Shown: piece by piece, positions 2,642-42,817 of the stretch
Layout of the letters: the number at the start of each line of letters is the position of its first letter
How positions within the stretch are numbered: position 1 is the first letter of the stretch
Translations under genes and position numbers: made by a program
The notes under the pieces: generated by a model
Seen by the model: the letters and a program-made list of their open reading frames with translations, nothing else
What the model was told of the DNA's origin: nothing
The model's database searches: none
IMG/VR virus record: IMGVR_UViG_3300010885_063515
Span: 1-54,620 of that record
Direction: 5' to 3' (one strand)
Source of the DNA: a virus
Length of the DNA stretch: 54,620 bases

Positions 2642-3337
2642 ATGGCAAAGGGCTCGGTCACATTCAATATCAAGGCCGCCGAGAGTAGCCTTAGGGCCGT
2701 CCGTAAGACCCTCCAGGAGTCAGTTGACCATCTAAACCCAACATTCCAGGCAGTGGCCGTAGAAATCGTGCAAAACGCCGTCTACGGCGGTCCTAACAGC
2801 CTTGCCGGCATGGCGTCGGAGCTTGCACCCATAGATACCGGGGCGCTGCAGGCTGGCCTTGCCTCCCCGGACTCTAGCGAGGAGTTTGATAAAGGCCGAT
2901 CATCTCAGAGCGTCTTTTCGGTCTCACCAATGGGCAAAGGTGGAGTTCAGTATGTTTCTGTGACCTACGGCACTGACCCGAAGAGGGATGACGGCACCGG
3001 ATATGCTCAATACGTAAAAGAGGATTTCCTATCTGCCCCAGCGGCAAAGTTCCGAACGAATATGGCCAGGCTTGGTACTGACATATCGCAGGCCATTGCA
3101 GCAGTCATTGCAGCCAACGTTCGCGTGGCAGCATCGAAATCCGGAACATACTCAGCTGCGAAAACTCGACTTAGCCCAACAAGCGTATTGAGATTGCTCA
3201 GGCAGTTTGGCTCAATTCCAATAGAGACAACAAGCGGAAGACAGTATGGGTACCGCAGACTTGCATCAATGTCGCGGTCCCAATACCTCAAGATCATGCG
3301 CCAGCGGCGCTATCTTGCCGGCAAACGATCTAGCTAA
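2642..3337 (+). CDS. Neck / minor tail protein, HK97 gp10-like
   Basis: Encodes 231 residues. The N-terminus contains the typical pattern of gp10-like neck proteins: an early strand, a long helix (ESSLRAVRKTLQESVDHL), then an APIDTGALQAGL segment, where P-x-D-T-G-x-L is the hallmark. The last ~60 residues are basic. It would join the neck and tail tube. It lies in the neck operon, and its 3' end overlaps the convergent metallophosphoesterase gene by 8 nt. There is no clear ribosome site; translation is probably coupled to the gene ending 2 nt upstream. It is longer than the usual ~150 residues because of the basic C-terminal extension. Confidence 0.7.
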   Translation: MAKGSVTFNIKAAESSLRAVRKTLQESVDHLNPTFQAVAVEIVQNAVYGGPNSLAGMASELAPIDTGALQAGLASPDSSEEFDKGRSSQSVFSVSPMGKGGVQYVSVTYGTDPKRDDGTGYAQYVKEDFLSAPAAKFRTNMARLGTDISQAIAAVIAANVRVAASKSGTYSAAKTRLSPTSVLRLLRQFGSIPIETTSGRQYGYRRLASMSRSQYLKIMRQRRYLAGKRSS

Positions 3338-4598
3338 GCCTAATCAGGTACTCAGCCGTAACGCCTTCTTTATGCTGGAAAAGCAGCCATTGGCAAGGCT
3401 CGCCAGCTGATGCAAGTTGCTCCTGAGCGTAGGTGTTCGAACTTTCGGTCGACCCGCCGCTCCAGTGAGTAATCCCGTTTAAGTACATCCTTGTTGGCGT
3501 ATGGAAGTGTCCAGCGGCGCTATAGTCAAATCGCGCTACCGTCATGTTCCAACCCTGAAGCTTTTTGCCAAACCCATACCATGGGAATCCAGCAAAGCCC
3601 CCACCAACTTGGTCACCGTGGAACAGGAACCACGTCTTGCCCTTTACCTCGTCTGCCGCAAACCAAGCTCGCTCACCCTCAGCAAGAGTTTCAACCCATT
3701 CGACGTTCTCTTGGCCTTTAAGCAACATTGATGCAATGCGATACATCATTGCGTCTGCGTTGCTCTCTGGATGGAATGTTCCCTTTCGACCAAGGCGGCC
3801 ATGGTTGCCAATGACGCCAACAACTTTGATCTTTTCAAAATCGCTAGAAAGTTTTCTAACCAGGCCGGCAAGGATTTCCCCGCCGTGGAAAATCTGGTTA
3901 TAAAGCGAAGCATCAACTAGGTGCGCCTGCCCAGGGAAAATGTCTTCTCCCTCAATGAGGTCGCCAAGAAGGTAAATTCTTAGCTCACGCACTGGGTGCG
4001 CCTTGCGCTGGATATCAACAAGCTTCTGGACCTTATCGGCAAGCTGCTTGATTCGGTCAGCGCAAACCTCTGAGTTATAGGTCGGAGTAATCTTTCCAAG
4101 CTGCCAATCTGAGAGCAGCAAAATCGCTGTCTCATCATCGCCCTTGCGGCCGTCATGCTTTGGCGCCTTTACCTGCTCAATATTAATCGCCGCTGCGGCT
4201 TCTCGTGCTGCCTGGTAAACAGCCTCAATCAGCTCCTGCTTTTCACGATCCTTGTCATCAAGCTTTCTAAGGGCTTTGCGATGCGCTGCCTTGAGGCGTT
4301 CAATTTCAGAGGTCGCCTCATATGCTGCATTTTCTCGCTCAGCAATTGAGCTAATAATGTCCGGCGTCATGCCAGAATTAATCTTATCTCGGAGTGATCC
4401 CGGTACCGCACTTGGCTTCCCGCCGTTGTTGATTCTCTTGTCAACAAACGATGCCTTGCCGCGAAGCAAATTGTTGCGCATGATTCTCCAGGAATCCCTG
4501 CTACGGTCTGGGTGCGAAGCAGAGAATGCTTCGTACGTCATGTTTATTGCATCCTGTTTTTCCTGCGCGGTCCATGACCGCACGGAGAACTCTGGCAT
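3330..4598 (-). CDS. Calcineurin-like metallophosphoesterase with N-terminal helical region
   Basis: Encodes 422 residues. Residues 1-145 are helical and charged, with a coiled-coil stretch at about 90-140. Residues ~155-422 are a binuclear-metal phosphoesterase domain: LLSDWQLG (D164), LGD (G212-D213), GNH (264-266), HGD (327-329) and GHFH (363-366). Position 166, where most family members have His, is Gln. Other phage members also have Q here, so it may be a subfamily trait. The likely substrate is DNA ends, nucleotides or phosphoprotein; the sequence does not decide. AAGGAG lies just before the ATG. It is encoded opposite to the surrounding virion genes, together with the small gene at 4628, as an inserted accessory cassette. 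Confidence 0.8.
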   Translation of the reverse strand: MPEFSVRSWTAQEKQDAINMTYEAFSASHPDRSRDSWRIMRNNLLRGKASFVDKRINNGGKPSAVPGSLRDKINSGMTPDIISSIAERENAAYEATSEIERLKAAHRKALRKLDDKDREKQELIEAVYQAAREAAAAINIEQVKAPKHDGRKGDDETAILLLSDWQLGKITPTYNSEVCADRIKQLADKVQKLVDIQRKAHPVRELRIYLLGDLIEGEDIFPGQAHLVDASLYNQIFHGGEILAGLVRKLSSDFEKIKVVGVIGNHGRLGRKGTFHPESNADAMMYRIASMLLKGQENVEWVETLAEGERAWFAADEVKGKTWFLFHGDQVGGGFAGFPWYGFGKKLQGWNMTVARFDYSAAGHFHTPTRMYLNGITHWSGGSTESSNTYAQEQLASAGEPCQWLLFQHKEGVTAEYLIRLS

Positions 4599-6936: not shown

Positions 6937-7230
6937 ATGGCTAGCCTTAATGAAGTGCGCCCAACGCGGGTGCTCACCCTCAATGACCTCGCTGACATCG
7001 AGGATAAGTTCGGAGGTCTTGACAAGGTTGACCTTACGAAGTTCACTGTACTTCGCTACATTTTGTGGCTTGTCCTTAAGAAGGATGACGCCAAGCTTGA
7101 TGAGCGAACAGTTGGTGATCAGTTTTCACTAGACACAATGCGGGAAGAGATCGATAAGGTACTTCGCTCCAGCGGCTTGATCGGCGCGGCCGACGAAGAA
7201 GGCGCTGAGGGAAAAGTAGCGGGGGCGTAA
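6937..7230 (+). CDS. Tail assembly chaperone, short form (lambda gpG-like)
   Basis: Encodes 97 residues, with AGGAG 8 nt before the ATG. It is helical and acidic (LNDLADIEDKFGGLDKVDLT, then LRYILWLVLKK), like other gpG-type chaperones that coat the tape measure protein during tail assembly. Residues 91-93 lie on the slippery sequence G GGA AAA (7209-7215); ribosomes that do not slip read on to the TAA at 7228. Its place between tail tube and tape measure genes is diagnostic. Confidence 0.8.
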   Translation: MASLNEVRPTRVLTLNDLADIEDKFGGLDKVDLTKFTVLRYILWLVLKKDDAKLDERTVGDQFSLDTMREEIDKVLRSSGLIGAADEEGAEGKVAGA

Positions 7231-7508: not shown

Positions 7509-10500
7509 GTGGCGGAAGATAATGTAGCAAGAGTTGGCATAGCTCTTGACTCCGCCGCGTTCCAAGACGGTGTATCCCGTGCCCTTCGTGACATCGATCG
7601 TCTCCTTAGCGGCCTAAAGACGCTACAGAACGCCAACCGGCAAATCTCCCTTGCCGCTGGCGGAGGCATGTTTGGTTCCGGATCTAAGTCCCCCGTTTCC
7701 AACTTTGCTAGAGACATAAACCGAAATGCGATACCGGCCCTGCGCGACATGGAACGCAATGCGATCCGTGTTGGCGGGGCCGTTCGCCGTTCCATGATGG
7801 AAATTGGCAGACTGAATGCTGCCGCAGAGCAGGCACAGATTCGGCAAGAACGGGCAGCCATCACAGCTCAGCGAAGGGCCATGAATACATCTTCTCGTCG
7901 CGGAAGGTCCGCTAGGGACGAGGGGCTGTTTGGAACAGTGTCGTCAACCCCATTGTTTGAAGACCCACGTAGCAATTCAGGGAAAATTGCTGCACGCTAT
8001 GTTCTTCGTAGCCTTGAAGAACTCATTACCTCCGAGTCTGAAAAATACCCAAAGATTATGCAACCGCGCCCACGCGGCGGCGGCGGACGAACAGCTAGCC
8101 GAGGCTCCGAAGAGACGGTCCAGAGCGTTGCAACGAAGTTTGCTCCAGGCAAGATCTTTAATACATCTACAAACCTAGAGGAAGGCCTTCCGGTTACAAT
8201 CGTTGGACCGGGCGGAGAGAAGTTTGTTCTTTCTGGAAACGGTCGCGTCATGGGCTTGCGACAGCTTTCCAAGGCACCACAAGGTCGAGTTCCAATCGTT
8301 TCTGCCGTTGAGGGATTCGTTACCGGCAACCCAACTTTGTTTGGCGGTTCTACTGGCGTTGAGGAAACATTAAAGGCAGTTGCAAAAATTGCAAAGGCGA
8401 AGCAAACCCCAATCCTCACGAGGGAGCTCGTAAGCACCATGGCTCAGCTCGGTGAGCGAGAGTCAGGAAAGCTTGGACTTGGCCTGAACACTAGGACCGC
8501 AATGTCTGAATCGGAAATGGCGATGGCCGTCTCCAAGCTTCTTCAGCGTCCCCCTACTGGCCTTGCAAAGGGAACCCCGGGTAAGATCCTTTCCGGTGGC
8601 GGGCAGGCCGTGCAGGAGTTTATTGGCCAGGTACTTGAGGTCCTACCACCACAAGTAGTTCGTTCTAGGTATCAGACTAGCTCGGGCGAGTCCAATAAAC
8701 AATTCCAGCAGCTCCTTGAAGGCGTTGCCATGTCTTCTGCGTACGGAAACAATCCAGCCACAGAGGCAATGATTACCAAGCTTCTTGAGGGCGGAAAATC
8801 AGGTCTTCCTCGAGAAATTGAGGGCGCCCTTCGACGAAACCTTGGCCCACAGCTCACCCTTCGCGGCAGGATTGCCTCTGGCGCAATCCCGGCTGAAATG
8901 GACCCGATTTACAATAACCTCCCGCAGGCCATTGAGCTGCTGGCAAGTGCTGGAAAGTCTTACGGACCAAAGTTTACTTCTGAGCAGATTGGAACACAGC
9001 AGGGGATGGAGCCCGCATCTCCAGAGGCGCTAAGTCTTGCACAGGCCATGCGCAAGGCTGGATCTGCTGGGCTCCCAGCATTCTTTGAGGCAATCGCCCA
9101 GTATGGCCAACGAGCCGTATCAGCCACCGCGCCAACCCTTGGGCTTGACCCGTCTGCGTTTGTTGCGGACCCATCTTCTGCAATAAAGATTGCGTCTGCT
9201 GCTGCTAAAAAGTTTAATGAGACAAGGGCCGCAGAGGCAAAGGCTAAGGCCGCAGCCGTGGCAGCGGGGAAGAGGCCCGCGGCTGCGATTAATCCAGAAC
9301 TACTGACGCAACGAGTAGTAGAGGAAGCTATTAGTCAAATAGCAACCACCGAGGAAATTAAATCAGTAGCTGAAAGCGCATCAAAAAAGGGCACGGCCAA
9401 AGTAAAGAAAGCCGTAGAGCAAAAGGTCGAGCAGGTTGCTGAAGTTGTTGCTGAGGCAGTAGCTGACCCACGGGCCACCACGATGCGCCGGCCAGAGTCA
9501 CAACGATTCTTTAAGGTTGAGCCTCGCGCCATTGGAACTGCAAAAGGTTCTGAAATAATCCGCAAGGGAGGATACCTTCCTTACGGGGAGGCATCAGAGG
9601 CGCAAAAAGGTAAGTACAACATGGCGCTTCTTACTGGGTACCACACAATTGAACGGGAATATGAGGCAGCCAAGAAAATTGAGGCGCTGCAGCCAAACAG
9701 AACTGAACAAGACCCTATACGCCAAAAGGTGGCTGCGATGGCGGCTGAGCTTGAAAGATTAAAGGCAATAATGGTTGAGCGCGGCCTTCACAAGCCAAGC
9801 ATGGCAGAGCAAATTTCGGAGCTATTCCACGGGCCTTCGTCCGGAGCACCTGAGCTAACTCCGACCAGAAGCTCTGGCGGGGGAGGTGGCGGCGGTGGCG
9901 GCGGTCGTCGACGAACAACTTATGGCGGCGGCGGCGGCGGTGAGGAGCCAAAGGTTCCGAAGTGGATTGAGAATTTCCAGAATGCCGTTACGGCGGCAGG
10001 GTTTGATCCACAAAGCCTTCAGTACCTAAATTCGTCATTTAAATTTGGTGGTACAGCCGGGATAGTAGAGCCAGGTTTGCACGGGCAGTCACGAGCCGCC
10101 CTAGGCGCTTTGCAGCAATATGCTGCCGTGCGCCAGATGAGCTTTATGCAAATGTCACGATCTCCTGTCGGCGGAGGCTCAAACGGATTTTGGCAGCCTG
10201 GCCCTGGGGCAGAACAGGGCGGAATCGGCCTTGGGAACCTTGGGGCTAAGACCGCCGCTCCGTTGCTCAGGACGTTCATTCACGAAATAGCACACGGAAC
10301 ATTTAACGCCTTAATGGCTGGTGGATACAAGCCGCAAAGTAAGGTGGAAATGTTTGGACCAAAAGGCGAGGCTCTTGGCCCAGCAGGAGCACGATCCCTT
10401 CTCTCACCGTACCGAGAGTCGACCGCATCTGGCCACGTAGACCCTGCGTTCTATCGATCACAGGCAATGATCAGCAAGGCTGGCGGGGCGCTCCTGCCAC

Positions 10501-13500
10501 AACTTGCGTTCCATAGGATGGTCGAAGAGATCATGCCGCAGGGGCATAACACTCAAGGCATTGGCATGGGCAAGTTCTCGCAACTTCTCACGCCGCACCT
10601 CAAGGAATTTGCCTCACCTGAGCAGGCGCAAGGCGCAGAGGAGTTTGTTAAGTTCTCAGCCCGAATGATGGAGGCAGCAAGCAACTTTACACAAGGGTCG
10701 ATTGGCAGAGGTGGAGCCTTAAGCATCATGTCGGAAGGAATTCAACAGCTTGGGGCTTCCAGTAAGGCATTCCCCTCAACCTTCTTCCTTGAGGCAACAT
10801 CCGTAGTCGGCAACGCCCTCAAGGGACTTGAGGCTGGTGACCCAGCAAACCTAACGAAAATGTCTAACGCCCTCATGAACGCGGCAGCACTTTCCGCAGG
10901 TCCTGGTGAGTTCCGACCAGGAATCGCAGTGGCGTCCAAAGCAGCAGAAGAAGTCGCCAGCTATTTGAGCAACGCAAGCATTGAAGAAAAGGCCGCGATA
11001 GCACTTGGCGCAAATCCAAAACTTCTTGGAGATACATCCTTTAACCCGGGAAATCAAAATCACATTAAGGCTGTTAACGAGGCCATAGCCCAAATAGCTG
11101 CAACTGCTTCTGAGACAGCTCGAGGCGCTTCGGTTGCGCGATTTGCCAATGGCCAAAGAATTGAAACTCCATACGCGGCAACCCAAGGCCTGCTTGGGCC
11201 ATACGCTCCTGGATCGCTTATGTCCCAGACATCTCCACTGCAGTTCCCTGGCGGATCATTCCAGCAGCGCATGCAATGGTATGCAAGCCAGACACCTGGA
11301 CAAAGGGCAGTTGAAGGCCCAATCCCTGGCGCCTATGCAAGAGCTACAGAATCGCGGTTTCTTGGCATTAGTCCTTCTTATCAAAAATCTTACATCCAGA
11401 GCAGAAATCGACTAGAGCTTGAGGCTGGACAGAAATCAAGTGCTCAGCAGCAATTTGTTGAATCTGCCAATGCCTCCGCACGATTCTCTTCTGTTCAAAG
11501 CAAGCTAAACCTTGTCGTACAGGACGGAAGCATTCAGTTTGGCCATCTTTCACGTGCCCTAACGTCTACTGGCGATGGATTTACTGTATCTACCATAAAC
11601 GCATTGAAGTTTGCTGCCGCAATTGCCGTTGGGCAGCAGATTACCGGATCTATCGTTGGAGCGTTTGAGCATCTTAAGGGCGGAATCATTGGATTCAACG
11701 CCATGCTTGAGGCCGCCAGCGTAGGGTTTAACACCCTATTCAAGAACGCCGGCAGATCGATCAAAGAGGCAGAAGCGGAAACAACTAAGACTATTGCGAC
11801 ACTCCGTGACTTTGCCAACGTTACCAACTTTAGGTTTGGAGACCTTGAAACTGCCGCCCTAAGGATGCAGGCGTTCGGATTTGAGGTTGACACTGCCAAG
11901 GCGGCCCTCAAGGGTCAAATGCCCGTCCTTTATGAGGTAAAAAATGTTATCGCAGAAAACGCAAATGGAACTAAACAATTTGCTGGGGCACTGGTAAACA
12001 TCGGCGATGCGGTTGCCGCGCTCGGAGGAGAAGACGACAAGCTGAGAAGGATTACGTACGCCCTTGGACAGATGAACTCTGCTGGGCGCGTATATCAGAA
12101 CGACATGATGCAGCTGGCCAACGCCGGTATTGCCGGATACGATATCCTCGCTAAGGCGTTGCTCCAAGAAATTGAGGCTAGCCCCACCCTGAAGAAGGCC
12201 AATGCTGCCATTTATAACAAGCTGATGAACCCAGCCACCGCGGTCGAAGAGGTCCGCAGGTTGGCAAAGACGGGAAGATTGTTTGGCCCAGGAGCGGTTC
12301 AGGCAATCCTTGGCGGCCTTGAAGAGCGCTACGGCGGGGGAATGAAGGCATTCTCCAGGACCTTTGTTGGTGCATTGACAACCGTAGCAGATACGTCACA
12401 GTCCCTTGTTGCCACATCATTCAATCCGCTATTCTCCGTTGTCAGGGATCTCACTATTCAGCTGGCCGACTTCCTGCAGACAGCCGAGGCAACAACTGCC
12501 GCAACAGGGTTTGCAAAAACTATATCTGGAATTGCTGAGGCTATCCGTTCCGGTTTGCCGTCCGCAATTTCAATGGTCAATAAAGTTGTTTCTGCAGTTA
12601 CTGACACGTTTGGAAAGCTTGCAGGAAGTGCCGTTAGCGGAACCAGCAGTCTTGGTGGATTTTTCCAGAATGCCATTAAGGGGCTTTCAACGATAGGCGA
12701 CGTGTTGCAGAACGACGTCATTAGAAACTTTGGCGCAACACTCGTCACTGCAAAGTTGGTCCTTGGCTTTATATCCTCCAACCCGCTGCTTGCAACTATT
12801 ACCGCATCTACCGCAGCCCTTGGGTTCTTGGCAACAGCAGTTCAGACAAATCAATTTGGTCTGGGGACGGCATTTGATAAGATTTCTGGTCCACTTCAGT
12901 CTTCTCTTAGCAACATTGGCAATAATCTACTTCCAAGCATCTCCGGATCTCTTACCTCTGCCGCCACTGTTATTGGAACTGCAATTGCCTCACTTATTCA
13001 GGCATTTGCGCCATTAATTCAGATAATCCTTGAAATTGTAAATGTTGTGTCCGGAGCGATGAAACCGTTCTCATCGATTCTTGGCATAGCATTGGCACTG
13101 TTTGTCGGAAAGCAAATACTTATCGACGGAGTTGCCTCGGCAATGGCACGATTTGCAATGTTCACTGATAAGGCAGCATCATCTATCGACAAGATGAAAA
13201 TGCAATGGTTTGCCTTCAAGGAGCTGCGGGCATTTGAACGATTTGGCCAACAGACATTTACCGCACAAATGATTGAGCCACAGTACAACAAGGCCGGGGA
13301 GCTTACACGTCAAGGAGAGGTAATTTCTGGTCCGCTTGGCGGTCCAGGGCAAGGTCTGTCGAGCCCGCTACTTTATAAGATTGTAAATGCGCAGCTTGCA
13401 GCAGAGGCGGCTAAGCTTGGACTTAAGTATACCAATCAGAACGAGGGATTGACTGGTGCGCAAAAGATCTCAGCGGAAAGCATGCCAATAGCAGGTGACC

Positions 13501-16500
13501 AGGCGATTACGGCTCTTGCCTGGCTGAAGGGCCTAAAGAAAAGCGATGAGACGGCATATAACCAGGTTCTTAAGGGGGCCACCCCCTCTGAAAGACTGCA
13601 GCTAGAAGAGGCCATGAATGCTGGCATTCGGAATGTAGTTGGCACATTGACTGCTTTCAAGAACTCAGTTATGGCCATTGAGGGGAACTTTAATCGACTT
13701 AAGTTTGTTGCCGCAGCGCTTGCTGAAAAGCTTGGCGGTATTAGTAATCTGGCTACTGGAATGGGTGTTCTTGTCTCAGTGATTGGCTCTCTTACCGGCA
13801 GCGAAAGCCTTCAGCAGCTTGGGGCCACCCTTACCACCCTAGGGATTGCAGGATCTGCTCTTACCGGCGTCTTCAACGGGTTGAAGCTTGCGTTTGGTAT
13901 GTCGTCCCTTGCCGCCGCAATTACAATGGTGATTGCAGCGCTTGGGGTGTGGGCGCTCAATCTGGCTGGAACATATCCGGATAAGAAGAAAAAGCTTGAC
14001 CAAGTAGAGGGCATCTTCAGGGATTACGCGACAAATAAGCAACTTGATTTTAACACCCCGTATGACCAGCTGAATGACCCAGCTCTTAAGTGGTACAGGG
14101 ACAACATAAAGCCGGACATGGGTCTCCTTATTACGGAAATTACCCCAGAGCTGCAAGAATTTATTGATCGCATCCAAGAAATAAATAATCAAGCCGCGAG
14201 TGATCGGGCCGCCATGAATCCCCGCTATCGACGACAGAGGAACGAGTCGCAGATTGAGCAGTATGCAATTAGGGGGTATACACCAGAGCAGATTGCTACA
14301 TTCATGGGTCTTGACCTTACGTATGTAAAAAACTTCTTTAATAAGCTCGTTCAAGACGGTGGTGAGGCCGGTCAGAACATTACAAAGATCCTCACGGCGC
14401 AACTTGATGCTAGCGGTGAGGCCCTAAAGAAGGCACAAGACATTCTAGAAAAAGCCACTGCTGCCTTTGAGCGCCCACTCAACCGCCTCATGTCCCGAGT
14501 CCAGACACTTATCTCGGATCTATTTGCTGACGAGAAGAAGAAGCTGGAGGAGGCAAAGAACTCAGCTCTTGCCAACATTGAGGTTCTCTACAACGGTGAA
14601 ACCATTCGACTTGGCGTACTTCAGGAGCAATACGATGTCCTTTCCGCCCAGAAGAAAGAAATGGAGGACATGCAGAAGCTTGAAGACCTTCGAACCAAGG
14701 CGTCTGAGGCGGCTCTTGGCATGTTTGATGCCGGAACAGACCCCCTTGAACGAGCTCGGGCAGCACGAGATGCTGCGCGGCAACTGTTCTCAGAAGGTGA
14801 GCAGATGCGCCTTGACTCAATGGCAAGCACTATTGAGTCGGCGAAGAAGAGCGTCCCGTATACCGCTACCTCAGAGGACTACGACCAGCGAGTTAAGGCC
14901 CTTGAGGTAGACCAGCAGGAGCGGCAGCGAGTACTGACCGAAACAATTGACGACCTTATGCGCAAGGTAAAAAATGGAAAGCTAACTGCAGCGGAAGCAA
15001 AGAAGATGCTGTACGACGCATTCTCGCAGACAGGACTTGACCTTTCAGTTGCAGCGGCTCAAGGCTATGACTTTATGGACAGCTTCTCTTCCGGGTTTAT
15101 GGGCGCGCTTGAAAAGAACATTGATCGAACGTTTAAGAACTTGCCAAAGTTTATTACCTCTGCCCTGCGCGTGCTCAAAGAGGATGCGGCATACAAGAAG
15201 GCGCAAGATGAGCTAGCTAACATTCTTAACCCGACTGATGACAGCGCAAGAGTTTCTGGGTCAAGGGTCATTGCGGCAAGGGACGCCAGGTTGGGCGAGG
15301 CGAAGAGAATACTCTCCGCTCTTCATCTTGCTGAAAACATGCCTGGCCAAACGCAAGCACAAAAAGACAAGCTTGTTCAGCAAATGTCGCAGCTTGCAAT
15401 ATACATTTCTAAACTTGAAAAGACCAACATTTCCGCTGATCAAACATACCCACAGAACGACCTCACCCTTATCATGGAAAACTTTACTGCCAATACGTCT
15501 GGCATCCTCAAGATGCTTTATGCGTTGTTTGGATACCAGCAGACACAGAGCTGGTGGCAGAGCGGCGTTCCGCTTGCAAACCGACCAGGGGATCTGATTC
15601 CATCAAATTACAGGGCATCCGGTGGACCTGTTGGCGCCGGAACCTACATGGTCGGAGAGCGCGGACCAGAGATGCTGCAAATGTTCCCAAATGGCGGAGG
15701 CTATGTTGTCCCTAACCACAAGCTGCCTTCCGGCATGCGTTCATCCGCTGCTGCCCTTGGCGGCGGCATCATGGGCCGAGCATGGGGCGGTGGCGTAGGG
15801 CCAGTAAACCCAGAAGACCCATGGACCAGCAGGGCTCCAGTTGTTTCCGGACCAACTGGTGGTGGAATTAACGATTGGCATGATTGGGCAATTCGATTCA
15901 ACGACCGAGAGGGGATGAAGTATTCGTTTGACTGGGGCGACGTAGTTATTGACGAGGACGCATTTGACAATATTGGCGAGGTAAAGAAATTCTTGGAAGG
16001 GATAAGCGCTCGAGTAAGAAAGTCAATTGCAGCAGCCCCCGAGGGAACGTTTGATCCAAGAAATCCTCGCACCAGGCCGCAAGTACATGTTGTTGCTAGG
16101 GGACCCGCCTCCTTCGCTAACGGTGCCATAGCGCAAATGGCGTCAACGCTCACAAATAAGATTGCACTGTACGGCGAAACGTGGTCAGAGAAGGAAAAAG
16201 ACTGGAGGCCAAATCACCCAACAGAAATGCTTGATAGTATCCCGCATGAATTTGGACATATTGTTCATGGCAGGATAAATGCAAACAAGCATGCCGCCAG
16301 CAGGGCTGGATTTATGGATTACCTTGCCTCAATTGGGGGCGTAATCGGCGGTGGATATCGTCCTAGACCGGGACAGGGGCCAGGACCAGCATTCTTTGAC
16401 GCCATGTTGCGAATGAGCCCAGAGCTTGGTTTGTATGATGCAGCAAAAGAAATTCCCGGTAATCGATCTATTATTGATTCTATTGACGCCATTGGAAAGC

Positions 16501-18335
16501 GAAACGGCAGAAAAAATACCTTCTTCTCTCCCGGACATTACGAACAAAATTACGGCGAAATGTATGCGCAGCTTTTCCAAAACTGGGTAGACAGCGACAT
16601 GGGAAGAATGAAAATGGTCGGTGTGCCAGGAGGAGCAAACGAGTACCTGAGGAACTTGGCGGCGCAGCAGGGTTGGAGGTCCTACGTAGGCACGGACGCA
16701 TCTAAGCTGCCAGCGCTACGCGGAAAAGTTTCTTCCCCAGGATACGGACTAAGACCAGGAAACATTCTTTATAATAATAGGGCGCAGGCAGGAATAGGAT
16801 CGCTGCTTGACATCGGTCAAATGGCGGCAACTGGCACGTTGAGCACGGCCGGTGTTGCTGCATCTGCGGGGCTCAATGCGATGAGCTTAATCCCAAAGAT
16901 TGGCGGCCCGCTTTCTGCGGTTGCCGGCCTTGGACTCACTGCGGCGACTGGCGGGAATGTCATGCGTGCCCTGTTCTCAACAGTTGGCTCAATCGGCGGT
17001 GGACTGCTCGGCGGCCTGCTTGGATCGTTCCTTGCCCCGGGAGTTGGAACGGTTGCCCTTGGGTATGGGGCTTCAATGGCTGGCGGCGCGCTTGGTGGAT
17101 CACTCTATGACCTCCTCTTTGGCGGCCCTGGTGGCTCAACGGTGCAAGGCTCCTTCCGCAAGGGCGCATTTGACATTCCCGGCAAGGCGTGGGGCGGGGC
17201 GGTAGGTCCGTCCGGCCCTGAAGGGGCTAACTTTACAAACTTTGGCGACAAGGGCAGGACTACTGGGAAAATGCCAGCTGCATTCCTTGATCGGTTCATG
17301 AAGTATGGGATGCAAGGCCTATACAACACTCCGTGGGAAAAATATATTGGTGGCAGCTACATGCCGGTCTACGGTAATGCCGTAAATGCTTGGTGGGACC
17401 GCCTCACGGTAGCCTCTTCAGTTCCATTTAGCTCACTTCCTAAGTACCAGCAACTGAACGAGATTATGTCTGGAGCATATCTTCCTCCAGAGTTTTACAC
17501 CGGAAACAAGGAAAACCTTTCATATGCAGAGCTGATGGCGTCTCGTGGGGCCAAGTTCCCCGGCGTGGTACAGGGGTGGCTGACAGCGTTTGGCGACAAG
17601 CCACCCGTCACCTATTGGGACCGAGAGACCAGGGAGAACAACCCAGAGAACGCAGAATACCTTAAATACAATAAGCTTTACAACTGGTGGCGGAAAGTCG
17701 GACAGTTTGGAAACTATAAGGGGTATGACGACCCGTACTACCGCTGGACCAAAACTATTGATCCAAAAACAGGCACCCTTACGGACACATGGCCAGAAAC
17801 TGCCCTAAGCAGGAAATCTAAAAGGGTTCAGGATCTCATCCCTGAAATTTCCACATGGATGCTTACCCATGCGGGCCCAATGACGCAAGGCTGGTTTGGC
17901 AAGGAGTGGACCATGGACCAGTATAAGTCTTCCCCATGGGGTAAGAAAATGTTTGGGCCATGGAAGGACATCATGTTTGGCGAGGGCGGGTTTGTAGGCG
18001 ACATAGAGAAATACTCGCAGAGAGTACAGCAGGGGTGGATGGGTGAGCGCTATGCGGCAGGGGGAAGCTATCGACAAAATCGAGCATTCCTTGTTGGCGA
18101 AAATGGCCCAGAGATCATGGTTCCGGGTGGGCTAGGAGGATCAATCATCCCTAACCACAAGCTGCGCGGACCAGGAAACATCGGGTCAATGGCCAGCGGC
18201 CAGAGCGTCAACGCCTCTGTCATTATCAACAATCCAACCGTGTCAAACAGCGCAGATATTGATAAACTAGCTGCAAAGGTAAGCGAGGCTCAAACACGAG
18301 CCCTGCGTGCAGCTGGATATGTAAGGCCGTCATAA
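7509..18335 (+). CDS. Giant tape measure protein with embedded enzyme-like domains
   Basis: Encodes 3,608 residues from a GTG with GGGGGAG upstream. It sets tail length and is ejected with the DNA. N-terminal helical repeats are followed by a GNGR motif (243-246) in a context like ddrB/ParB-type domains of phage polyvalent proteins, an Ala/Lys-rich helix region near 560-650, and a Gly/Arg linker near 788-812. A zincin-type HEIAH (925-929) comes next, then long helical and Gly-rich hydrophobic segments typical of tape measures. A second HEFGHIVH motif lies at 2913-2920. The tape-measure C-terminal signature GExGPE followed by PNHKL occurs twice (near 2716 and 3530). Position after the chaperones confirms the role; the domain calls are motif-level only. 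Confidence 0.9.
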   Translation: MAEDNVARVGIALDSAAFQDGVSRALRDIDRLLSGLKTLQNANRQISLAAGGGMFGSGSKSPVSNFARDINRNAIPALRDMERNAIRVGGAVRRSMMEIGRLNAAAEQAQIRQERAAITAQRRAMNTSSRRGRSARDEGLFGTVSSTPLFEDPRSNSGKIAARYVLRSLEELITSESEKYPKIMQPRPRGGGGRTASRGSEETVQSVATKFAPGKIFNTSTNLEEGLPVTIVGPGGEKFVLSGNGRVMGLRQLSKAPQGRVPIVSAVEGFVTGNPTLFGGSTGVEETLKAVAKIAKAKQTPILTRELVSTMAQLGERESGKLGLGLNTRTAMSESEMAMAVSKLLQRPPTGLAKGTPGKILSGGGQAVQEFIGQVLEVLPPQVVRSRYQTSSGESNKQFQQLLEGVAMSSAYGNNPATEAMITKLLEGGKSGLPREIEGALRRNLGPQLTLRGRIASGAIPAEMDPIYNNLPQAIELLASAGKSYGPKFTSEQIGTQQGMEPASPEALSLAQAMRKAGSAGLPAFFEAIAQYGQRAVSATAPTLGLDPSAFVADPSSAIKIASAAAKKFNETRAAEAKAKAAAVAAGKRPAAAINPELLTQRVVEEAISQIATTEEIKSVAESASKKGTAKVKKAVEQKVEQVAEVVAEAVADPRATTMRRPESQRFFKVEPRAIGTAKGSEIIRKGGYLPYGEASEAQKGKYNMALLTGYHTIEREYEAAKKIEALQPNRTEQDPIRQKVAAMAAELERLKAIMVERGLHKPSMAEQISELFHGPSSGAPELTPTRSSGGGGGGGGGGRRRTTYGGGGGGEEPKVPKWIENFQNAVTAAGFDPQSLQYLNSSFKFGGTAGIVEPGLHGQSRAALGALQQYAAVRQMSFMQMSRSPVGGGSNGFWQPGPGAEQGGIGLGNLGAKTAAPLLRTFIHEIAHGTFNALMAGGYKPQSKVEMFGPKGEALGPAGARSLLSPYRESTASGHVDPAFYRSQAMISKAGGALLPQLAFHRMVEEIMPQGHNTQGIGMGKFSQLLTPHLKEFASPEQAQGAEEFVKFSARMMEAASNFTQGSIGRGGALSIMSEGIQQLGASSKAFPSTFFLEATSVVGNALKGLEAGDPANLTKMSNALMNAAALSAGPGEFRPGIAVASKAAEEVASYLSNASIEEKAAIALGANPKLLGDTSFNPGNQNHIKAVNEAIAQIAATASETARGASVARFANGQRIETPYAATQGLLGPYAPGSLMSQTSPLQFPGGSFQQRMQWYASQTPGQRAVEGPIPGAYARATESRFLGISPSYQKSYIQSRNRLELEAGQKSSAQQQFVESANASARFSSVQSKLNLVVQDGSIQFGHLSRALTSTGDGFTVSTINALKFAAAIAVGQQITGSIVGAFEHLKGGIIGFNAMLEAASVGFNTLFKNAGRSIKEAEAETTKTIATLRDFANVTNFRFGDLETAALRMQAFGFEVDTAKAALKGQMPVLYEVKNVIAENANGTKQFAGALVNIGDAVAALGGEDDKLRRITYALGQMNSAGRVYQNDMMQLANAGIAGYDILAKALLQEIEASPTLKKANAAIYNKLMNPATAVEEVRRLAKTGRLFGPGAVQAILGGLEERYGGGMKAFSRTFVGALTTVADTSQSLVATSFNPLFSVVRDLTIQLADFLQTAEATTAATGFAKTISGIAEAIRSGLPSAISMVNKVVSAVTDTFGKLAGSAVSGTSSLGGFFQNAIKGLSTIGDVLQNDVIRNFGATLVTAKLVLGFISSNPLLATITASTAALGFLATAVQTNQFGLGTAFDKISGPLQSSLSNIGNNLLPSISGSLTSAATVIGTAIASLIQAFAPLIQIILEIVNVVSGAMKPFSSILGIALALFVGKQILIDGVASAMARFAMFTDKAASSIDKMKMQWFAFKELRAFERFGQQTFTAQMIEPQYNKAGELTRQGEVISGPLGGPGQGLSSPLLYKIVNAQLAAEAAKLGLKYTNQNEGLTGAQKISAESMPIAGDQAITALAWLKGLKKSDETAYNQVLKGATPSERLQLEEAMNAGIRNVVGTLTAFKNSVMAIEGNFNRLKFVAAALAEKLGGISNLATGMGVLVSVIGSLTGSESLQQLGATLTTLGIAGSALTGVFNGLKLAFGMSSLAAAITMVIAALGVWALNLAGTYPDKKKKLDQVEGIFRDYATNKQLDFNTPYDQLNDPALKWYRDNIKPDMGLLITEITPELQEFIDRIQEINNQAASDRAAMNPRYRRQRNESQIEQYAIRGYTPEQIATFMGLDLTYVKNFFNKLVQDGGEAGQNITKILTAQLDASGEALKKAQDILEKATAAFERPLNRLMSRVQTLISDLFADEKKKLEEAKNSALANIEVLYNGETIRLGVLQEQYDVLSAQKKEMEDMQKLEDLRTKASEAALGMFDAGTDPLERARAARDAARQLFSEGEQMRLDSMASTIESAKKSVPYTATSEDYDQRVKALEVDQQERQRVLTETIDDLMRKVKNGKLTAAEAKKMLYDAFSQTGLDLSVAAAQGYDFMDSFSSGFMGALEKNIDRTFKNLPKFITSALRVLKEDAAYKKAQDELANILNPTDDSARVSGSRVIAARDARLGEAKRILSALHLAENMPGQTQAQKDKLVQQMSQLAIYISKLEKTNISADQTYPQNDLTLIMENFTANTSGILKMLYALFGYQQTQSWWQSGVPLANRPGDLIPSNYRASGGPVGAGTYMVGERGPEMLQMFPNGGGYVVPNHKLPSGMRSSAAALGGGIMGRAWGGGVGPVNPEDPWTSRAPVVSGPTGGGINDWHDWAIRFNDREGMKYSFDWGDVVIDEDAFDNIGEVKKFLEGISARVRKSIAAAPEGTFDPRNPRTRPQVHVVARGPASFANGAIAQMASTLTNKIALYGETWSEKEKDWRPNHPTEMLDSIPHEFGHIVHGRINANKHAASRAGFMDYLASIGGVIGGGYRPRPGQGPGPAFFDAMLRMSPELGLYDAAKEIPGNRSIIDSIDAIGKRNGRKNTFFSPGHYEQNYGEMYAQLFQNWVDSDMGRMKMVGVPGGANEYLRNLAAQQGWRSYVGTDASKLPALRGKVSSPGYGLRPGNILYNNRAQAGIGSLLDIGQMAATGTLSTAGVAASAGLNAMSLIPKIGGPLSAVAGLGLTAATGGNVMRALFSTVGSIGGGLLGGLLGSFLAPGVGTVALGYGASMAGGALGGSLYDLLFGGPGGSTVQGSFRKGAFDIPGKAWGGAVGPSGPEGANFTNFGDKGRTTGKMPAAFLDRFMKYGMQGLYNTPWEKYIGGSYMPVYGNAVNAWWDRLTVASSVPFSSLPKYQQLNEIMSGAYLPPEFYTGNKENLSYAELMASRGAKFPGVVQGWLTAFGDKPPVTYWDRETRENNPENAEYLKYNKLYNWWRKVGQFGNYKGYDDPYYRWTKTIDPKTGTLTDTWPETALSRKSKRVQDLIPEISTWMLTHAGPMTQGWFGKEWTMDQYKSSPWGKKMFGPWKDIMFGEGGFVGDIEKYSQRVQQGWMGERYAAGGSYRQNRAFLVGENGPEIMVPGGLGGSIIPNHKLRGPGNIGSMASGQSVNASVIINNPTVSNSADIDKLAAKVSEAQTRALRAAGYVRPS

Positions 18336-21300: not shown

Positions 21301-23550
21301 CTAACCATTGGCCATGGCTATAGCTCATCTTCTGTTCCAAACAATTTCCTTAATGCCACGCTTGGGGATTTTATTGTTTCATCTAAGTGCCTGAATAACA
21401 ACGACGAGCTGCAATTTATTTCCTGGCTTGCTCACTGGTACACGCTACAAGATAAACTACAAGACGATAACGATTATCGTGACATTATAAATCTTCCAGG
21501 CAAGACCAGGACAAATCGAGCCAAGGAGCCGTTCAATGGCATGACGCTCCGCCAGGCCATGGACTATATTTGCAAGAAAACTGGATGCCAATATTGGGTA
21601 GACCAGACTAAGACGTTGCACTATGTGCGAAGAGATATAAAAAATCTTGTCAAGAACCCGACGTTTGAGGACACGTACGGTGGGTTCAGCATGGCCAACT
21701 GGACAACTGGGTCAGGGTTCTCTATTACCTCACGAACTGGAGGCCCATACGGATATGGATATGCGATGCAATGCTCTGGAACAACGGCCGTTCATTCGTA
21801 CTCTAATCTTTTTGCCGTAAGCCCCGGGAATGCATTGTGGGCATCCGCAATGATCAAATCATCAGATGTTTCAAAGAGTCGCCTAAAGATTAGATTTTTT
21901 AATGCTTCCGGTGTTCAGGTTGGAGCAGATAAAACCATTGGGTCTGGTCTTGACGAAGATAACACGTGGCAAAAAATGTGGGGCATTGTTGATGTCCCGT
22001 CTAGCGCATCTATTACGCAAGCTGCTGTGGTATTTGACCACAATAGCAAGGTTGTCACATACACCGACTATTATGCAGATCCAATTTGCGTCATTCTTGA
22101 CGGAGAGTTTGGGTTTGCCGACTACGGCAGAGCACCAGGTTCCAGCTACGAACTGCTGTTTGACCCACAATTTAATGACCCTTCAACAGGAATCTACGCA
22201 CTTAAGACATTTGAAACGCCGCAAAACATTAGCCAGCATGGAAGCCAGTCAAACCGACTGTACGTTTATGCTAAGGCAACCTCGGTAGACCGAACTGGCG
22301 ACGTAATAATGGACAATGTGGTTGCCGGTCAGGTAATACGTTATACCTTTGACTTTGTTCAAGGCGTCTGGGCATCCCACGGAAAGCTCATTGAGGCCTC
22401 TACGACAAATTCAGACGTTGAAACGCTGGCGGATGCAACAAAAGCTGCATCAACATTTTGGGCGGAAAATGGCCAGGCCATCCAGTCGTATGAGTTTGAC
22501 CACTCAACCAATGCTTCCAGCGGAAGGCTTTCTGTCGGATCTGTTGTCCCGTACCTTTGGACAGAAGTTGGAATTACCGAACCTCTTGTTGTTAAGTCCC
22601 AGACTACAAGACTGATTGGCGGAGAGTTCTACTATTCGGTGCAACTTGCTGGAGAACCAGCATTCCAACAGAACGCTATTATCCTTGTAAAGAAGGATAA
22701 GCTAACAGTCAGCCTTGGAAGCGGTCAGCTTGCGTATACTCGTCCAACCTCTATCTCTAGTGTGTTAGCCACAGCCCAGGACGAAGATGGCCTAATTAGC
22801 GCCAACGATTTGCGCGTCTTGTTGCAATGGAGCTTTGACGACAATGATCCTCGCAACACGCTTGTTAAGGGATTTGAGGTGCAGCGACGAGCACAAAAGC
22901 TTGCCAAAAAGGCCATTGGTCCAGGTGGTTTGACTAACCGATCTCTGATCGGAGATGTGGCAATTCGCCGTACCGCTGCACTTGCAGGGAAATACTCAAC
23001 AGTAAAGCTTGCACTTTCAAATGCCAGCGCTATTCGAGTTGGCGATCTGATCACTATTGATAACTGGAAAAACGCCAAAAAGTTTACAAAGGGAAATCCA
23101 AGTATTAATGGAACATGGTCGGTAACATCTGTTCAGAATTCTGGGCGGGTCGTTTGCTTTAAGATGCTTGCCCATGCCGACACCGCAATAGCGGTATCAG
23201 CTCAGACTAAGGCGCAAGTTGCAGCCCAATGCCCGAGCCTCGTCATTAAATGGCGAGAGCATGGAGCTGCCGAGGCGGCGACTGAATGGCTTGGCTTCAA
23301 TAGCCTTGTGACCACAAAGAGCTTCTCTGACGATGGGGAGTTTGTTGGGGCCGGCAAAAGCAGCATCAATTATCGTTACCAGTATAGAATCCGGGCCGTT
23401 GCAATTACTAGTGATGATGCTAAACTGTATGGAGACTGGACTTACGTTCCAGAAACCTCCGTCAGTTCGCTTGTTGACAGCAGCTGGATCTATGTAACAC
23501 GTGATTTGCGCGTTGCGGCAGCCGCGCCGGTCGAAGAGGACCTCACATGA
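18337..23550 (+). CDS. Large tail tip / baseplate hub protein with lectin-like domains
   Basis: Encodes 1,737 residues and begins 1 nt after the tape measure stop. Residues ~1-145 resemble the hub N-terminal domain of Dit/Tal-like proteins (strands around VKIYEGDDLVFGGIVTEV and a CADYTALLDELV segment). Beta domains follow. About 866-1050 looks like a LamG/concanavalin-type domain (WAMGKSFSAICVVRVND and later LGDFIVSSKCL). About 1106-1260 looks like a carbohydrate-binding beta-sandwich (NPTFEDTYGGFSMANW). The C-terminal ~220 residues are Fn3-like. The protein would form the tail tip and contact the host surface. The stop overlaps the fibre gene start (ATGA). Domain names are inference from residue pattern; the hub role is well supported by order. 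Confidence 0.75.
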   Translation: MPTSSVTGSISVLLQPKLLNHTPLGDGFFDITKRVMFSESGNDSTFEFVQSSDGNQSTAKFSLFTMFPISATRWSGYSGATVDNKVANALVDPTFDFEIPSRTEVKIYEGDDLVFGGIVTEVSRVRQGGMIIMEVKCADYTALLDELVIDRYKVPYLAKDYEIIKGGFSTDADENAIKITKLNDGGSGSVREIVVSLDDAHDLTVGQEVIIDKTTNYNGTWTVSEILSLFAYKATKSGTAPYSASSETSGRHIPRTISFFDDIRTTDPYSGATFNAGITFDSSSVKEELSQVRFSPVTYLPDPKFPEQLGAKIWIPFGDPKSSSGRLTFDPKSGDTTTDLRLARIESTIVERYAIKSISTTAQGTSPDLYYTVTIMGTHYITDGTRVGIQNALFGDPNNVTQMFRVDNVASDTTLRIYTEQGVNITPITATITAATSANGKTTYTAVNTFKVGDFVGISDITQSGSTGTFNIPMGTITSCTPTSFTINNTTTNTYTSGGFASVSFVTISDPASLQAAEKRFRIVAGCRPNITATDDIPSDSSGIGEIWFDAKIGIAGTPTGKYFNKNEIAFISKSNQFDGRIRVEANDDDSGSGLEENYYVARWKRRKNIVTLQVARKAADGKIKFTRRHPFEKGSIITISGTTGPAGGSTNAPNANDVTITNIVDGMIQYEDAGKPHPKLLNLTQAQRAVTSVTISSAVLTKPYVMYADSREGTGNTYGQTPERIGYNAVLSHFQWEWQAVAGGDRAAGTPSPIFTTMPYDALEYIGGRQGVKFVGSKYNAVSSAMRSEIYSVKRSGTLVTVQTYAPVWFPEGGVVRVDSGVSSVNGTFTVVDVSTEDTTPGFTYNTATSGTVSETVTTGYAYNEHNGFWAMGKSFSAICVVRVNDSLPSASQFYTIWHHGSITTGQRRELKVDSTGQIIFSPTSSTNVSTGLTLLADEDAMIYVSLDHTNGNLRVRKNDETPYTTTLGSNYSGTTDPRTNGDVASNLTIGHGYSSSSVPNNFLNATLGDFIVSSKCLNNNDELQFISWLAHWYTLQDKLQDDNDYRDIINLPGKTRTNRAKEPFNGMTLRQAMDYICKKTGCQYWVDQTKTLHYVRRDIKNLVKNPTFEDTYGGFSMANWTTGSGFSITSRTGGPYGYGYAMQCSGTTAVHSYSNLFAVSPGNALWASAMIKSSDVSKSRLKIRFFNASGVQVGADKTIGSGLDEDNTWQKMWGIVDVPSSASITQAAVVFDHNSKVVTYTDYYADPICVILDGEFGFADYGRAPGSSYELLFDPQFNDPSTGIYALKTFETPQNISQHGSQSNRLYVYAKATSVDRTGDVIMDNVVAGQVIRYTFDFVQGVWASHGKLIEASTTNSDVETLADATKAASTFWAENGQAIQSYEFDHSTNASSGRLSVGSVVPYLWTEVGITEPLVVKSQTTRLIGGEFYYSVQLAGEPAFQQNAIILVKKDKLTVSLGSGQLAYTRPTSISSVLATAQDEDGLISANDLRVLLQWSFDDNDPRNTLVKGFEVQRRAQKLAKKAIGPGGLTNRSLIGDVAIRRTAALAGKYSTVKLALSNASAIRVGDLITIDNWKNAKKFTKGNPSINGTWSVTSVQNSGRVVCFKMLAHADTAIAVSAQTKAQVAAQCPSLVIKWREHGAAEAATEWLGFNSLVTTKSFSDDGEFVGAGKSSINYRYQYRIRAVAITSDDAKLYGDWTYVPETSVSSLVDSSWIYVTRDLRVAAAAPVEEDLT

Positions 23551-35556: not shown

Positions 35557-36320
35557 TTGAACTCCTTCCTGCTCCAAAATACCCTTCGGTAAGACGAGCT
35601 GATGTAGGTAAAGAACTTTCTTTGTGCCCGCGACACTTTGTCCGCGTCTTCTGGGCTTGTCTCGGTAACCAACTTCCAGCTCTCTCGCTTAAACGGAAAC
35701 ACCTGGCAGATTGGAGTTCCGGCAGGGATAATTGTTTCAATTTCCTTTGCATCCATTACAAAAGGAAAATTTACACAGTTTGTGTACGTGTCGGTATCAA
35801 CGACTCCAGGAAGTACCTCAAAATATCCATTTGGGTTGTTCATGGGCGGCATAAAAAGAGTTGAGTACCCTGGCGGAGTAATGATATGCCATGGATTAAT
35901 CATTTTAAACACGTCTCGCCCAGGAAACAACTTTGCCATTGGGTGGTGCTTTGCTTGGCCAAATTGGTGGCCCTCTACGGCCTTGGTGTCCCCGTCCCAG
36001 TGGCGCCAGCTAAATTCAAGCTTGGTTGGCTCGTCTGGGTTGTCAAAATCTTCCTTAGGGCTGATCTTAACAAAGATATCCTTATCGGTTTTTAAAACAT
36101 ACCCAAGGGAAAGGCTGTCTAGAACAGGAACGCACCTTTTAATTGTTGAGTTATATGTTGCGCTGGCATCAAGCCTCTTCTCTTCTGGCTCAGCCCCATT
36201 GTACCCGCCATATGATGGCATATCTTTCCACCAGTCCGGCATGTTTTTACCTATTGGCGTTGGCCAAAACTCCTCCAGGACTTGTCGGTCCGCAATAAAC
36301 TTAATAAGTTTATCCGCCAT
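35553..36320 (-). CDS. DUF6065-like protein, paralogue A
   Basis: Encodes 255 residues from the ATG at 36320 (GAGAGGG upstream; overlap of 11 nt with the thioredoxin-like gene). It has PDWWKDM, TIKRCVPVLDS, IITPPGYSTLF, NPNGYFEVLPGVVDTD, IIPAGTPICQVFPFKRESW and FWSRKEFK. It is most similar to paralogue C. Invariant Trp, Asp and Pro residues among the three copies suggest a shared fold. It is the first of the set after the fibres and thioredoxin-like gene in transcription order. Function unknown; an enzyme or binding barrel is possible. Confidence 0.65.
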   Translation of the reverse strand: MADKLIKFIADRQVLEEFWPTPIGKNMPDWWKDMPSYGGYNGAEPEEKRLDASATYNSTIKRCVPVLDSLSLGYVLKTDKDIFVKISPKEDFDNPDEPTKLEFSWRHWDGDTKAVEGHQFGQAKHHPMAKLFPGRDVFKMINPWHIITPPGYSTLFMPPMNNPNGYFEVLPGVVDTDTYTNCVNFPFVMDAKEIETIIPAGTPICQVFPFKRESWKLVTETSPEDADKVSRAQRKFFTYISSSYRRVFWSRKEFK

Positions 36321-42797: not shown

Positions 42798-42817
42798 GGG
42801 TTACCTCCATGGGGAGT

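What the first reader, a model, noticed from the sequence alone, without database searches (positions are those of the whole stretch)
7509..18335. Tape measure protein with two zincin motifs and a ddrB-like GNGR segment
HEIAH at residues 925-929 and HEFGHIVH at 2913-2920 fit metallopeptidase zinc sites, and GNGR at 243-246 stands in a context like ddrB-type domains. Such domains are known from phage polyvalent proteins injected with DNA. Embedding several in a tape measure suggests delivery of enzymes or cutting of the host envelope on entry.
Basis: partly seen in the sequence, partly recalled or inferred. Interest (0 to 1): 0.7.

Follow-up and report, generated by a model that had tools for sequence, protein, structure and literature searches.

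The report
Phage tape measure carrying swappable enzymes
The protein that sets the length of this virus's tail, and that is thought to be pushed into the bacterium ahead of the viral DNA, has enzyme-type domains built into it, and related viruses carry different ones in the same place, so the tail ruler may double as an injection vehicle for enzymes.

Summary
ORF 7509-18335 (3608 aa) is a tape measure protein (TMP) with GNGR 243-246, HEIAH 925-929 and HEFGHIVH 2913-2920. GNGR lies in a ddrB-ParB domain (PF18763, E 6.9e-9, above cut-off). In every fetched relative where a profile finds either metallopeptidase region, its HExxH is present. Third-ligand candidates: [H/E]xDPxF in zincin 1, Ex[YF]A in zincin 2. 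Zincin 2 resembles known zincins, weakly; zincin 1's fold is unconfirmed.

Among 36 complete family TMPs the region before a conserved core runs from 68 to 2969 aa. Core clades carry largely different cargo: ddrB plus zincin 1, or a kinase-like domain plus two HExxH regions. In one close pair the zincin-2 module is replaced by another. In Bacillus phage Eoghan's TMP the core match starts at residue 80.

Best reading: a TMP carrying polyvalent-type enzyme cassettes delivered on infection. Delivery and activity are inferred. Precedent: P23-45's RNA-polymerase-fused TMP. Envelope cutting is not supported.

The parts
7509..18335 (+). Tape measure protein, 3608 aa, GTG start, with embedded enzyme-type domains
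7509..7808 (+). N-terminal cap (res about 1-100; boundary approximate), shared within the ddrB group and with the L020/L013 group
   Evidence: L008/L010 51-52% identical to the window over res 5-85; L009 and L012 caps match those of L013, L020, L022 (best E 1.9e-8); not evident by eye in the mid-size group
7935..8600 (+). ddrB-like ParB domain (res 143-364; Pfam match res 158-255; SGNGR at 242-246)
   Evidence: PF18763 E 6.9e-9 above cut-off; alignment A3; profile-profile E 1.3e-26 with ddrB domains of 10 non-TMP phage ORFs
10065..11153 (+). Zincin 1 region (res 853-1215): HEIAH 925-929, candidate third ligand H976 in GHVDPAF
   Evidence: HExxH and DPxF in 11 of 11 rows, H at the ligand position in 9 and E in 2; AF2 mean pLDDT 77.7; no zincin fold match above noise
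11523..13148 (+). Conserved TMP core, first part (res 1339-1880), with hydrophobic segments between 1760 and 1878
14376..15800 (+). TMP core, second part (res about 2290-2764; boundary approximate)
   Evidence: BLAST match to at least part of it in 22 of 36 complete non-redundant members, window included (my count)
15960..16832 (+). Zincin 2 cassette (res 2818-3108): HEFGH 2913-2917, candidate third ligand E3017 in EMYAQLF
18054..18335 (+). TMP C-terminal tail (res 3516-3608) and stop codon
   Evidence: BLAST match in 29 of 36 complete non-redundant members, window included (my count); up to 69% identical in L003, whose core is 39%

Best explanation
The gene encodes a tape measure protein that carries polyvalent-protein-type enzyme cassettes. 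A short N-terminal cap, the hydrophobic core and a C-tail are retained. Between cap and core sits a cargo block (ddrB-like ParB domain, linkers, zincin 1); between core and C-tail sits a second cassette (zincin 2). Likely mechanism: the TMP fills the tail tube during assembly; on adsorption it leaves the tail ahead of the DNA, its hydrophobic core helps form the entry channel, and the cargo reaches the cell with it. There the ddrB-like domain would act on DNA or nucleotides, and the zincins would cut proteins, either freeing cargo from the TMP or attacking host proteins. Shown by sequence: domain identities (ddrB firmly, zincin 2 moderately, zincin 1 by motif), conserved putative catalytic residues, position relative to the core, cargo differences between clades. 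Inferred: virion incorporation, delivery into the cytoplasm, catalytic activity, targets.
For: (1) Domains: Pfam ddrB-ParB, found in 6 of 18 records searched (3 over the cut-off), each time inside the TMP frame; zincin 2 likeness; conserved HExxH and third-ligand candidates. (2) Position: the core match begins at residue 80 in Eoghan's TMP (window 1433 pairs with Eoghan residue 92), and the core starts near residue 68 in relative L039 but near 1339 here. (3) Modularity: in 36 complete non-redundant TMPs the pre-core region runs from 68 to 2969 aa; HExxH occurs somewhere in the protein in 18 of 22 with at least 1270 aa before the core, 1 of 4 with 1199-1263 aa, and 0 of 10 with under 600. Core clades have largely different cargo: between the ddrB group and the L020/L013 group BLAST finds only the cap (L009, L012) and one segment of 50-64 aa; the tree is. 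(4) Cassette replacement: L022 and L038 are 67.5% identical over about 4740 aa, then unrelated over about 500 aa (zincin 2 in L038, another module in L022), then 62.5% identical; L012 has about 750 aa with zincin 2 where L009 has a 175-aa linker, flanks 60% and 88% identical. (5) L020 and L022 hold a Pfam PI3/PI4-kinase match (34.3 and 27.9 bits, cut-off 27.1); L038 and L074 show the same DRHxxN...IDN stretch by eye (motif meaning recalled). (6) Precedent: the TMP of Thermus phage P23-45 has an RNA polymerase at its N-terminus (PMC10770324, abstract, passages and Discussion).
Against: No experiment shows the protein in virions, intact, or injected. Zincin 1's fold is unconfirmed: Foldseek and VIA gave mostly unrelated helical matches. 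Zincin 2's model is poor outside its first about 100 residues (mean pLDDT 50.7), its best Foldseek E is 2.6 and best VIA Z 7.2, inside the range the tool calls middling. Plain alignment puts Q3013, not a Glu, at its third-ligand column; only a profile made without the window favours E3017. Zincins could be maturation enzymes acting before release. Folded domains are hard to fit inside a tail tube (general knowledge). Relatives are metagenomic contigs without known hosts; core boundaries were set by hand.
Confidence: 0.6

Rival explanations
1. The zincins are maturation proteases: they process the TMP itself (for example trimming it or releasing the cargo) during tail assembly and are not meant for the host.
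For: Iyer et al. 2017 propose autoproteolysis by the zincin of P1 DdrB, whose processed form enters the head (PMC5512222 passages). Zincin 2 lies next to the TMP C-tail.
Against: Zincin 2 is absent or replaced in complete relatives that keep core and C-tail (L008, L009, L010, L013, L022), and none of the 10 complete TMPs with a short pre-core region has an HExxH, so it is not a general need of tail maturation. It would not explain ddrB or the kinase-like domain.
Confidence: 0.2
2. Envelope-penetrating enzymes: the metallopeptidases open the cell wall or outer layers on entry.
For: Metallopeptidase domains are called characteristic of many TMPs (PMC10770324 passages).
Against: No M23, transglycosylase or amidase family was listed (20 of the 42 relatives' pre-core pieces listed were scanned). 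Zincin 2's neighbours are protein-cutting peptidases. ddrB-type domains are predicted to act on DNA or nucleotides (PMC5512222 section 15). The C-terminal 4431 of 5002 residues of the P23-45 TMP hold no HExxH, so that protein's peptidase is probably of another type.
Confidence: 0.1
3. Ornamental or decayed domains: relics of recombination with polyvalent-protein genes that do nothing.
For: Cargo is not universal: L039 has only 68 aa before the core. The window's own zincin 2 departs from the usual third-ligand alignment.
Against: The HExxH residues stay invariant in rows mostly 20-33% identical to the window.
Confidence: 0.08

Closest known systems
Thermus phage P23-45 gp96, RNA-polymerase-fused tape measure (Chaban et al. 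2024, PMC10770324)
   Same: Giant TMP with a catalytic domain at its N-terminus and a metallopeptidase annotation.
   Different: Cargo there is an RNA polymerase; no HExxH in the C-terminal 4431 residues examined, and no match above 3.6 bits to this family's core, ddrB or zincin profiles. Here the cargo is ddrB plus zincins and differs between clades.
Polyvalent proteins (Iyer et al. 2017, PMC5512222), e.g. P1 DdrB
   Same: ddrB-like ParB, zincin and kinase domains in very long polypeptides near late genes.
   Different: In the passages and sections I read they are separate proteins or fused to MuF, lysozyme or RNA polymerase domains; a search for words beginning 'tape' in that paper's main text gave 0. 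Here the array is part of the tape measure. Whether our kinase-like domain belongs to their kinase clade was not tested.
Other TMPs (Bacillus phage Eoghan; TP901-1)
   Same: Core homology to Eoghan (2.5e-34). [quoted passage not shown]
   Different: In Eoghan the core match starts at residue 80, so no large block precedes it.
Catalytic domain of lethal factor and other gluzincin-type peptidases
   Same: Zincin 2 model: the nine best VIA rows are this domain (Z 6.8-7.2, about 157 aligned); profile hits at E 0.016 and weaker over the third-ligand helix.
   Different: No Pfam match, identity about 13%, Z under 8; a fold likeness only, with no sign that it acts on animals.

Membership tests
Tail tape measure protein | Sequence match to TMP families | tested here: met
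   phrog_305 E 1.3e-4; TMP_3 E 7.8e-8 but below Pfam cut-off; relatives up to 4.7e-17 (L069); Eoghan TMP 2.5e-34 with the family core profile
Tail tape measure protein | Hydrophobic segments and position among tail genes | tested here: met
   Hydrophobic segments between 1760 and 1878, at 2134-2152 and 3166-3184; phrog_2115 'tail protein' E 1.8e-5 just upstream at 6937-7230; fibre-type protein with S74 domain at 23547-27494
Tail tape measure protein | Sets tail length in the virion | not testable with these tools
   needs mutants and microscopy
ddrB-like ParB domain | Match above the curated cut-off and conserved Arg | tested here: met
   36.3 bits vs 27.6; Arg of SGN[GA]R invariant in 7 of 7 aligned and in every profile hit; that this is the active-site Arg of PMC5512222 section 15 is my reading
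ddrB-like ParB domain | DNase/NTPase activity | not testable with these tools
   needs protein; in the paper itself it is a prediction
Polyvalent proteins | Several domains of unrelated biochemistry in one polypeptide, near virion genes | tested here: met
   ddrB plus zincin-like domain; virion genes around
Polyvalent proteins | Injected with the DNA | not testable with these tools
   inferred from TMP biology
Zincin metallopeptidase (zincin 2) | HExxH plus downstream Glu ligand | tested here: inconclusive
   HExxH in 11 of 11 rows; E-x-[YF]-A-[ED]-x-[FY] in 10 of 10 relatives, EMYAQLF in the window by a profile built without it; plain MAFFT alignment instead sets Q3013 at that column. Met for the relatives; ambiguous for the window's own copy
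Zincin metallopeptidase (zincin 2) | Zincin fold | tested here: inconclusive
   VIA rows nearly all metallopeptidases but Z at most 7.2; Foldseek E 2.6 or worse; pLDDT 63-84 over residues 1-100 and low beyond
Zincin metallopeptidase (zincin 1) | HExxH plus third-ligand candidate | tested here: met
   HExxH 11 of 11; H in 9 and E in 2 of 11 at the [HE]xDPxF position; that this residue binds zinc is inferred
Zincin metallopeptidase (zincin 1) | Zincin fold | tested here: inconclusive
   AF2 pLDDT 77.7, but no significant fold match

The most novel reading that the evidence does not exclude
A lineage of long-tailed environmental phages uses the tape measure protein as a general protein-delivery chassis: cap, core and tail with swappable enzyme cassettes (ddrB-like ParB, zincins, a kinase-like domain, and many unrecognised modules) loaded into the tail and discharged with or before the DNA.
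Probability: 0.5. Interest if true: 0.82.

Novelty: new variant of a known kind. Interest (0 to 1): 0.66.

Why it matters
Polyvalent proteins are predicted to be among the first phage products a cell meets. If the tape measure itself can be the carrier, delivery is built into the tail, and each cassette is a candidate early counter-defence or takeover enzyme. The family offers natural cassette swaps between close relatives and long pre-core blocks with no recognised domain. It also asks whether cargo adds to tail length: complete members run from 1536 to 5594 aa, so tails would be alike if cargo is not measured and several-fold different if it is.

Tried and rejected
A relative search with the zincin 1 region alone found nothing. 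Megablast against named phages found nothing; tblastn of residues 1-1600 found 14 Bacillus phage TMP records through the core, and residues 2765-3608 found none. Single-sequence PDB searches of both zincin regions gave nothing. The zincin 1 profile hit a repeat protein (E 0.0045) and other proteins, mostly over its helical part, taken as spurious. The ddrB profile found no meaningful PDB match; L020 cargo gave one weak match (E 0.05). The zincin 1 model gave no zincin above noise: SprT-like viral proteins at E 2.0 and 2.5 (ranks 27, 38) and BepA at VIA Z 5.3. The top viral row (E 4.6e-20) is a 93% identical protein named 'DdrB-like domain-containing protein' from an uncultured phage, so public annotation already flags the ddrB part. 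Profile comparison of HExxH regions of different clades was weak and motif-driven (best 69% probability, zincin 1 with zincin 2), so common descent of all HExxH cassettes is not claimed. Host search: two distant MAG loci only. Contractile sheath: 0 of 18 records, control positive in 3 of 14 genomes; the records may be fragments. Eight post-core stretches against Pfam: one SHOCT match in L064. A DNA-ligase match in L064 cargo (E 0.0069, below cut-off) was not pursued. The kinase match covers only positions 131-175 of a 241-position model. An idea that zincin 2 lost its third ligand (Q3013) was weighed and left open. Comparisons of L003/L007 and L006/L007 listed no match for the first about 885 residues although their first 110 look nearly identical; not resolved, not used. 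The first script for the profile comparison printed the wrong lines; redone.

Rows dropped: of 52 non-redundant ORFs, 43 with a core position set by hand from BLAST matches entered the cargo counts, 36 complete ones the length table, 29 sequences the core alignment and tree. Core starts may be off by some tens of residues. The HExxH shuffles of cargo (27 observed in 43 pieces, mean 0.24, maximum 4 over 500 shuffles; rest of the same proteins 10 observed, mean 0.10) ignore relatedness. The alignments A1 and A2 took rows picked by their HExxH; two searches were the check without that choice, with profiles built from those rows.

Full report
Observation. The window is a 54,620-base virus record. 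The protein is a tape measure: phrog_305 over 1337-1728, TMP_3 below its cut-off, hydrophobic segments in the core. The four relatives scanned match PHROG TMPs, and a profile of the family core matches the annotated TMP of Bacillus phage Eoghan at 2.5e-34. Chance does not give two HExxH here (0 of 5000 shuffles).

ddrB segment. Pfam ddrB-ParB matches residues 158-255 above its cut-off. In seven aligned family members QPR-x-R, the L-x-EG motif and SGN[GA]R are kept. An alignment search returned 25 loci, of which L106-L117 lie outside the TMP family. Their ddrB domains sit in 10 distinct ORFs, 7 of them 2071-4216 aa and the others 645, 955 and 1793 aa, the last two running into contig ends; 5 of the 10 have an HExxH. 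Profile comparison with these 10 gives E 1.3e-26, and the TMP core profile finds nothing in them. So the same domain occurs both in separate large proteins and in this TMP. In 18 records searched with the Pfam model, 6 match, each once and inside the TMP frame, 3 over the cut-off.

Zincin 1. HEIAH is kept as HE[IL][AS]H in the 10 relatives aligned, and about 50 residues on all have D-P-x-F, preceded by H in 9 of 11 rows and E in 2 (L009, L012). I take this H/E as the third ligand; the likeness to a SprT pattern is recalled, not tested. These rows were picked by motif, but every profile hit in all fetched loci also holds an HExxH. AlphaFold gives pLDDT 77.7; Foldseek, VIA and the viral library give no zincin above noise, the long helical part dominating the VIA matches. 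Status: metal site likely, fold open.

Zincin 2. HExGH is kept in the 10 relatives aligned, and all 10 have E-x-[YF]-A-[ED]-x-[FY] downstream. A profile made without the window sets window EMYAQLF (E3017) there, weakly; plain MAFFT alignments set Q3013. The profile's six PDB hits are all lethal factor chains (best E 0.016). The model is fair only in its first about 100 residues. Of the top four Foldseek rows three are HExxH zinc proteins (VgrG2b recalled as such), at E 2.6-7. The 50 VIA rows are nearly all metallopeptidases, lethal factor's catalytic domain first (Z 6.8-7.2). Z is below 8, so this is a fold likeness.

A family of cargo-bearing tape measures. A search with the whole protein found 76 related loci in viral contigs; 52 non-redundant ORFs remain, the window included. 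In 36 complete ones total length runs from 1536 to 5594 aa and the region before the core from 68 to 2969 aa. By BLAST to the window, 29 of 36 show the C-tail and 22 of 36 part of the second core stretch (counted). HExxH occurs somewhere in 18 of the 22 with at least 1270 aa before the core, 1 of 4 with 1199-1263 (L054, in its post-core part), and 0 of 10 with under 600. In Eoghan the core match begins at residue 80, so the long N-termini are insertions behind a cap, or the short ones are deletions.

Cargo by clade. In the mid-size group no such cap is evident by eye. On the core tree of 29 rows the ddrB group (100/99), the L013/L020/L022 group (100/100), the L043/L044/L064/L066 group (100/100), the short group (100/99) and the mid-size group (94/93, not starred) each form a cluster; L039 is a long lone branch. 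Cargo size class thus follows core clades, 3 changes on the tree.

Cassette exchange among close relatives. L022 and L038 share 67.5% identity up to residue about 4740 and 62.5% over the last about 155 residues; between lies zincin 2 in L038 and an unrelated module in L022, and that module also occurs in L013 and L017. L012 has about 750 aa with zincin 2 where L009 has 175 aa. Zincin 2 is found in the ddrB group, the L020 group and L054. L020 and L022 cargo match Pfam PI3_PI4_kinase over the catalytic loop (E 3.1e-8 and 2.7e-6); L038 and L074 show the same stretch.

How it works. [quoted passage not shown] PMC10770324 Discussion). In TP901-1 the N-terminal 154 residues, the C-terminal 60 and the first hydrophobic region are the minimum for infectivity (PMC5099701 abstract). 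Here comparable parts are the ones kept within a group while the blocks between them change, which reads as tail-work plus cargo. The ddrB domain is predicted by Iyer et al. to be an NTP-regulated DNase or NTP-sensing domain (PMC5512222 section 15). Zincins are the commonest domain of polyvalent proteins, proposed to process the polypeptide or act on targets (PMC5512222 passages). Which applies here is open.

Novelty. Fusion of an enzyme to a TMP is shown for P23-45's RNA polymerase (PMC10770324, abstract, passages, Discussion). Polyvalent arrays are known (PMC5512222, abstract, passages, sections 10, 15, 32), but words beginning with 'tape' occur 0 times in that main text. Searches pairing tape measure with polyvalent protein, metallopeptidase, enzymatic domain, zincin, virion RNA polymerase or effector, and polyvalent proteins with ddrB, listed no paper that by title or abstract start describes ddrB, zincin or kinase cassettes in TMPs. 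I read passages of PMC7824862, PMC11318856, PMC13299392, PMC8472413 and PMC9206674: none places such domains in a TMP in the passages shown. The library is open-access only, so absence there is not proof. I rate it a new variant of a known kind.

Confidence in the best explanation was lowered from 0.62 to 0.60 and the 'decayed domain' rival raised from 0.06 to 0.08, because the window's own zincin-2 third ligand is ambiguous.

Noticed in passing
38383-44584 (- strand): Three adjacent large proteins each match the PHROG head-decoration family phrog_2647, two of them also tail-fibre or virion-structural families.
   Followed up: no
31755-32816, 50006-50890 and 52676-53437 (- strand): Glycosyltransferase-like, nucleotide-sugar epimerase-like and weakly Anp1-like (below cut-off) genes, suggesting sugar modification by the phage.
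   Followed up: no
3330-4598 (- strand): Exonuclease-type gene (phrog_284, E 2.4e-46) on the opposite strand between head-tail and tail genes.
   Followed up: no
23547-27494: 1315-aa tail-fibre-type protein ending in an S74 intramolecular chaperone domain (residues 1208-1262).
   Followed up: no
36310-36846 (- strand): Thioredoxin-like gene (Pfam Thioredoxin E 3.8e-11).
   Followed up: no
L045, L049, L053, L062, L065, L069, L076 (region before the TMP core): Seven complete TMPs with about 1200-1700 aa before the core and no HExxH. In the six of them scanned against Pfam (all but L076) no family reached its cut-off: possible undescribed cargo.
   Followed up: partly
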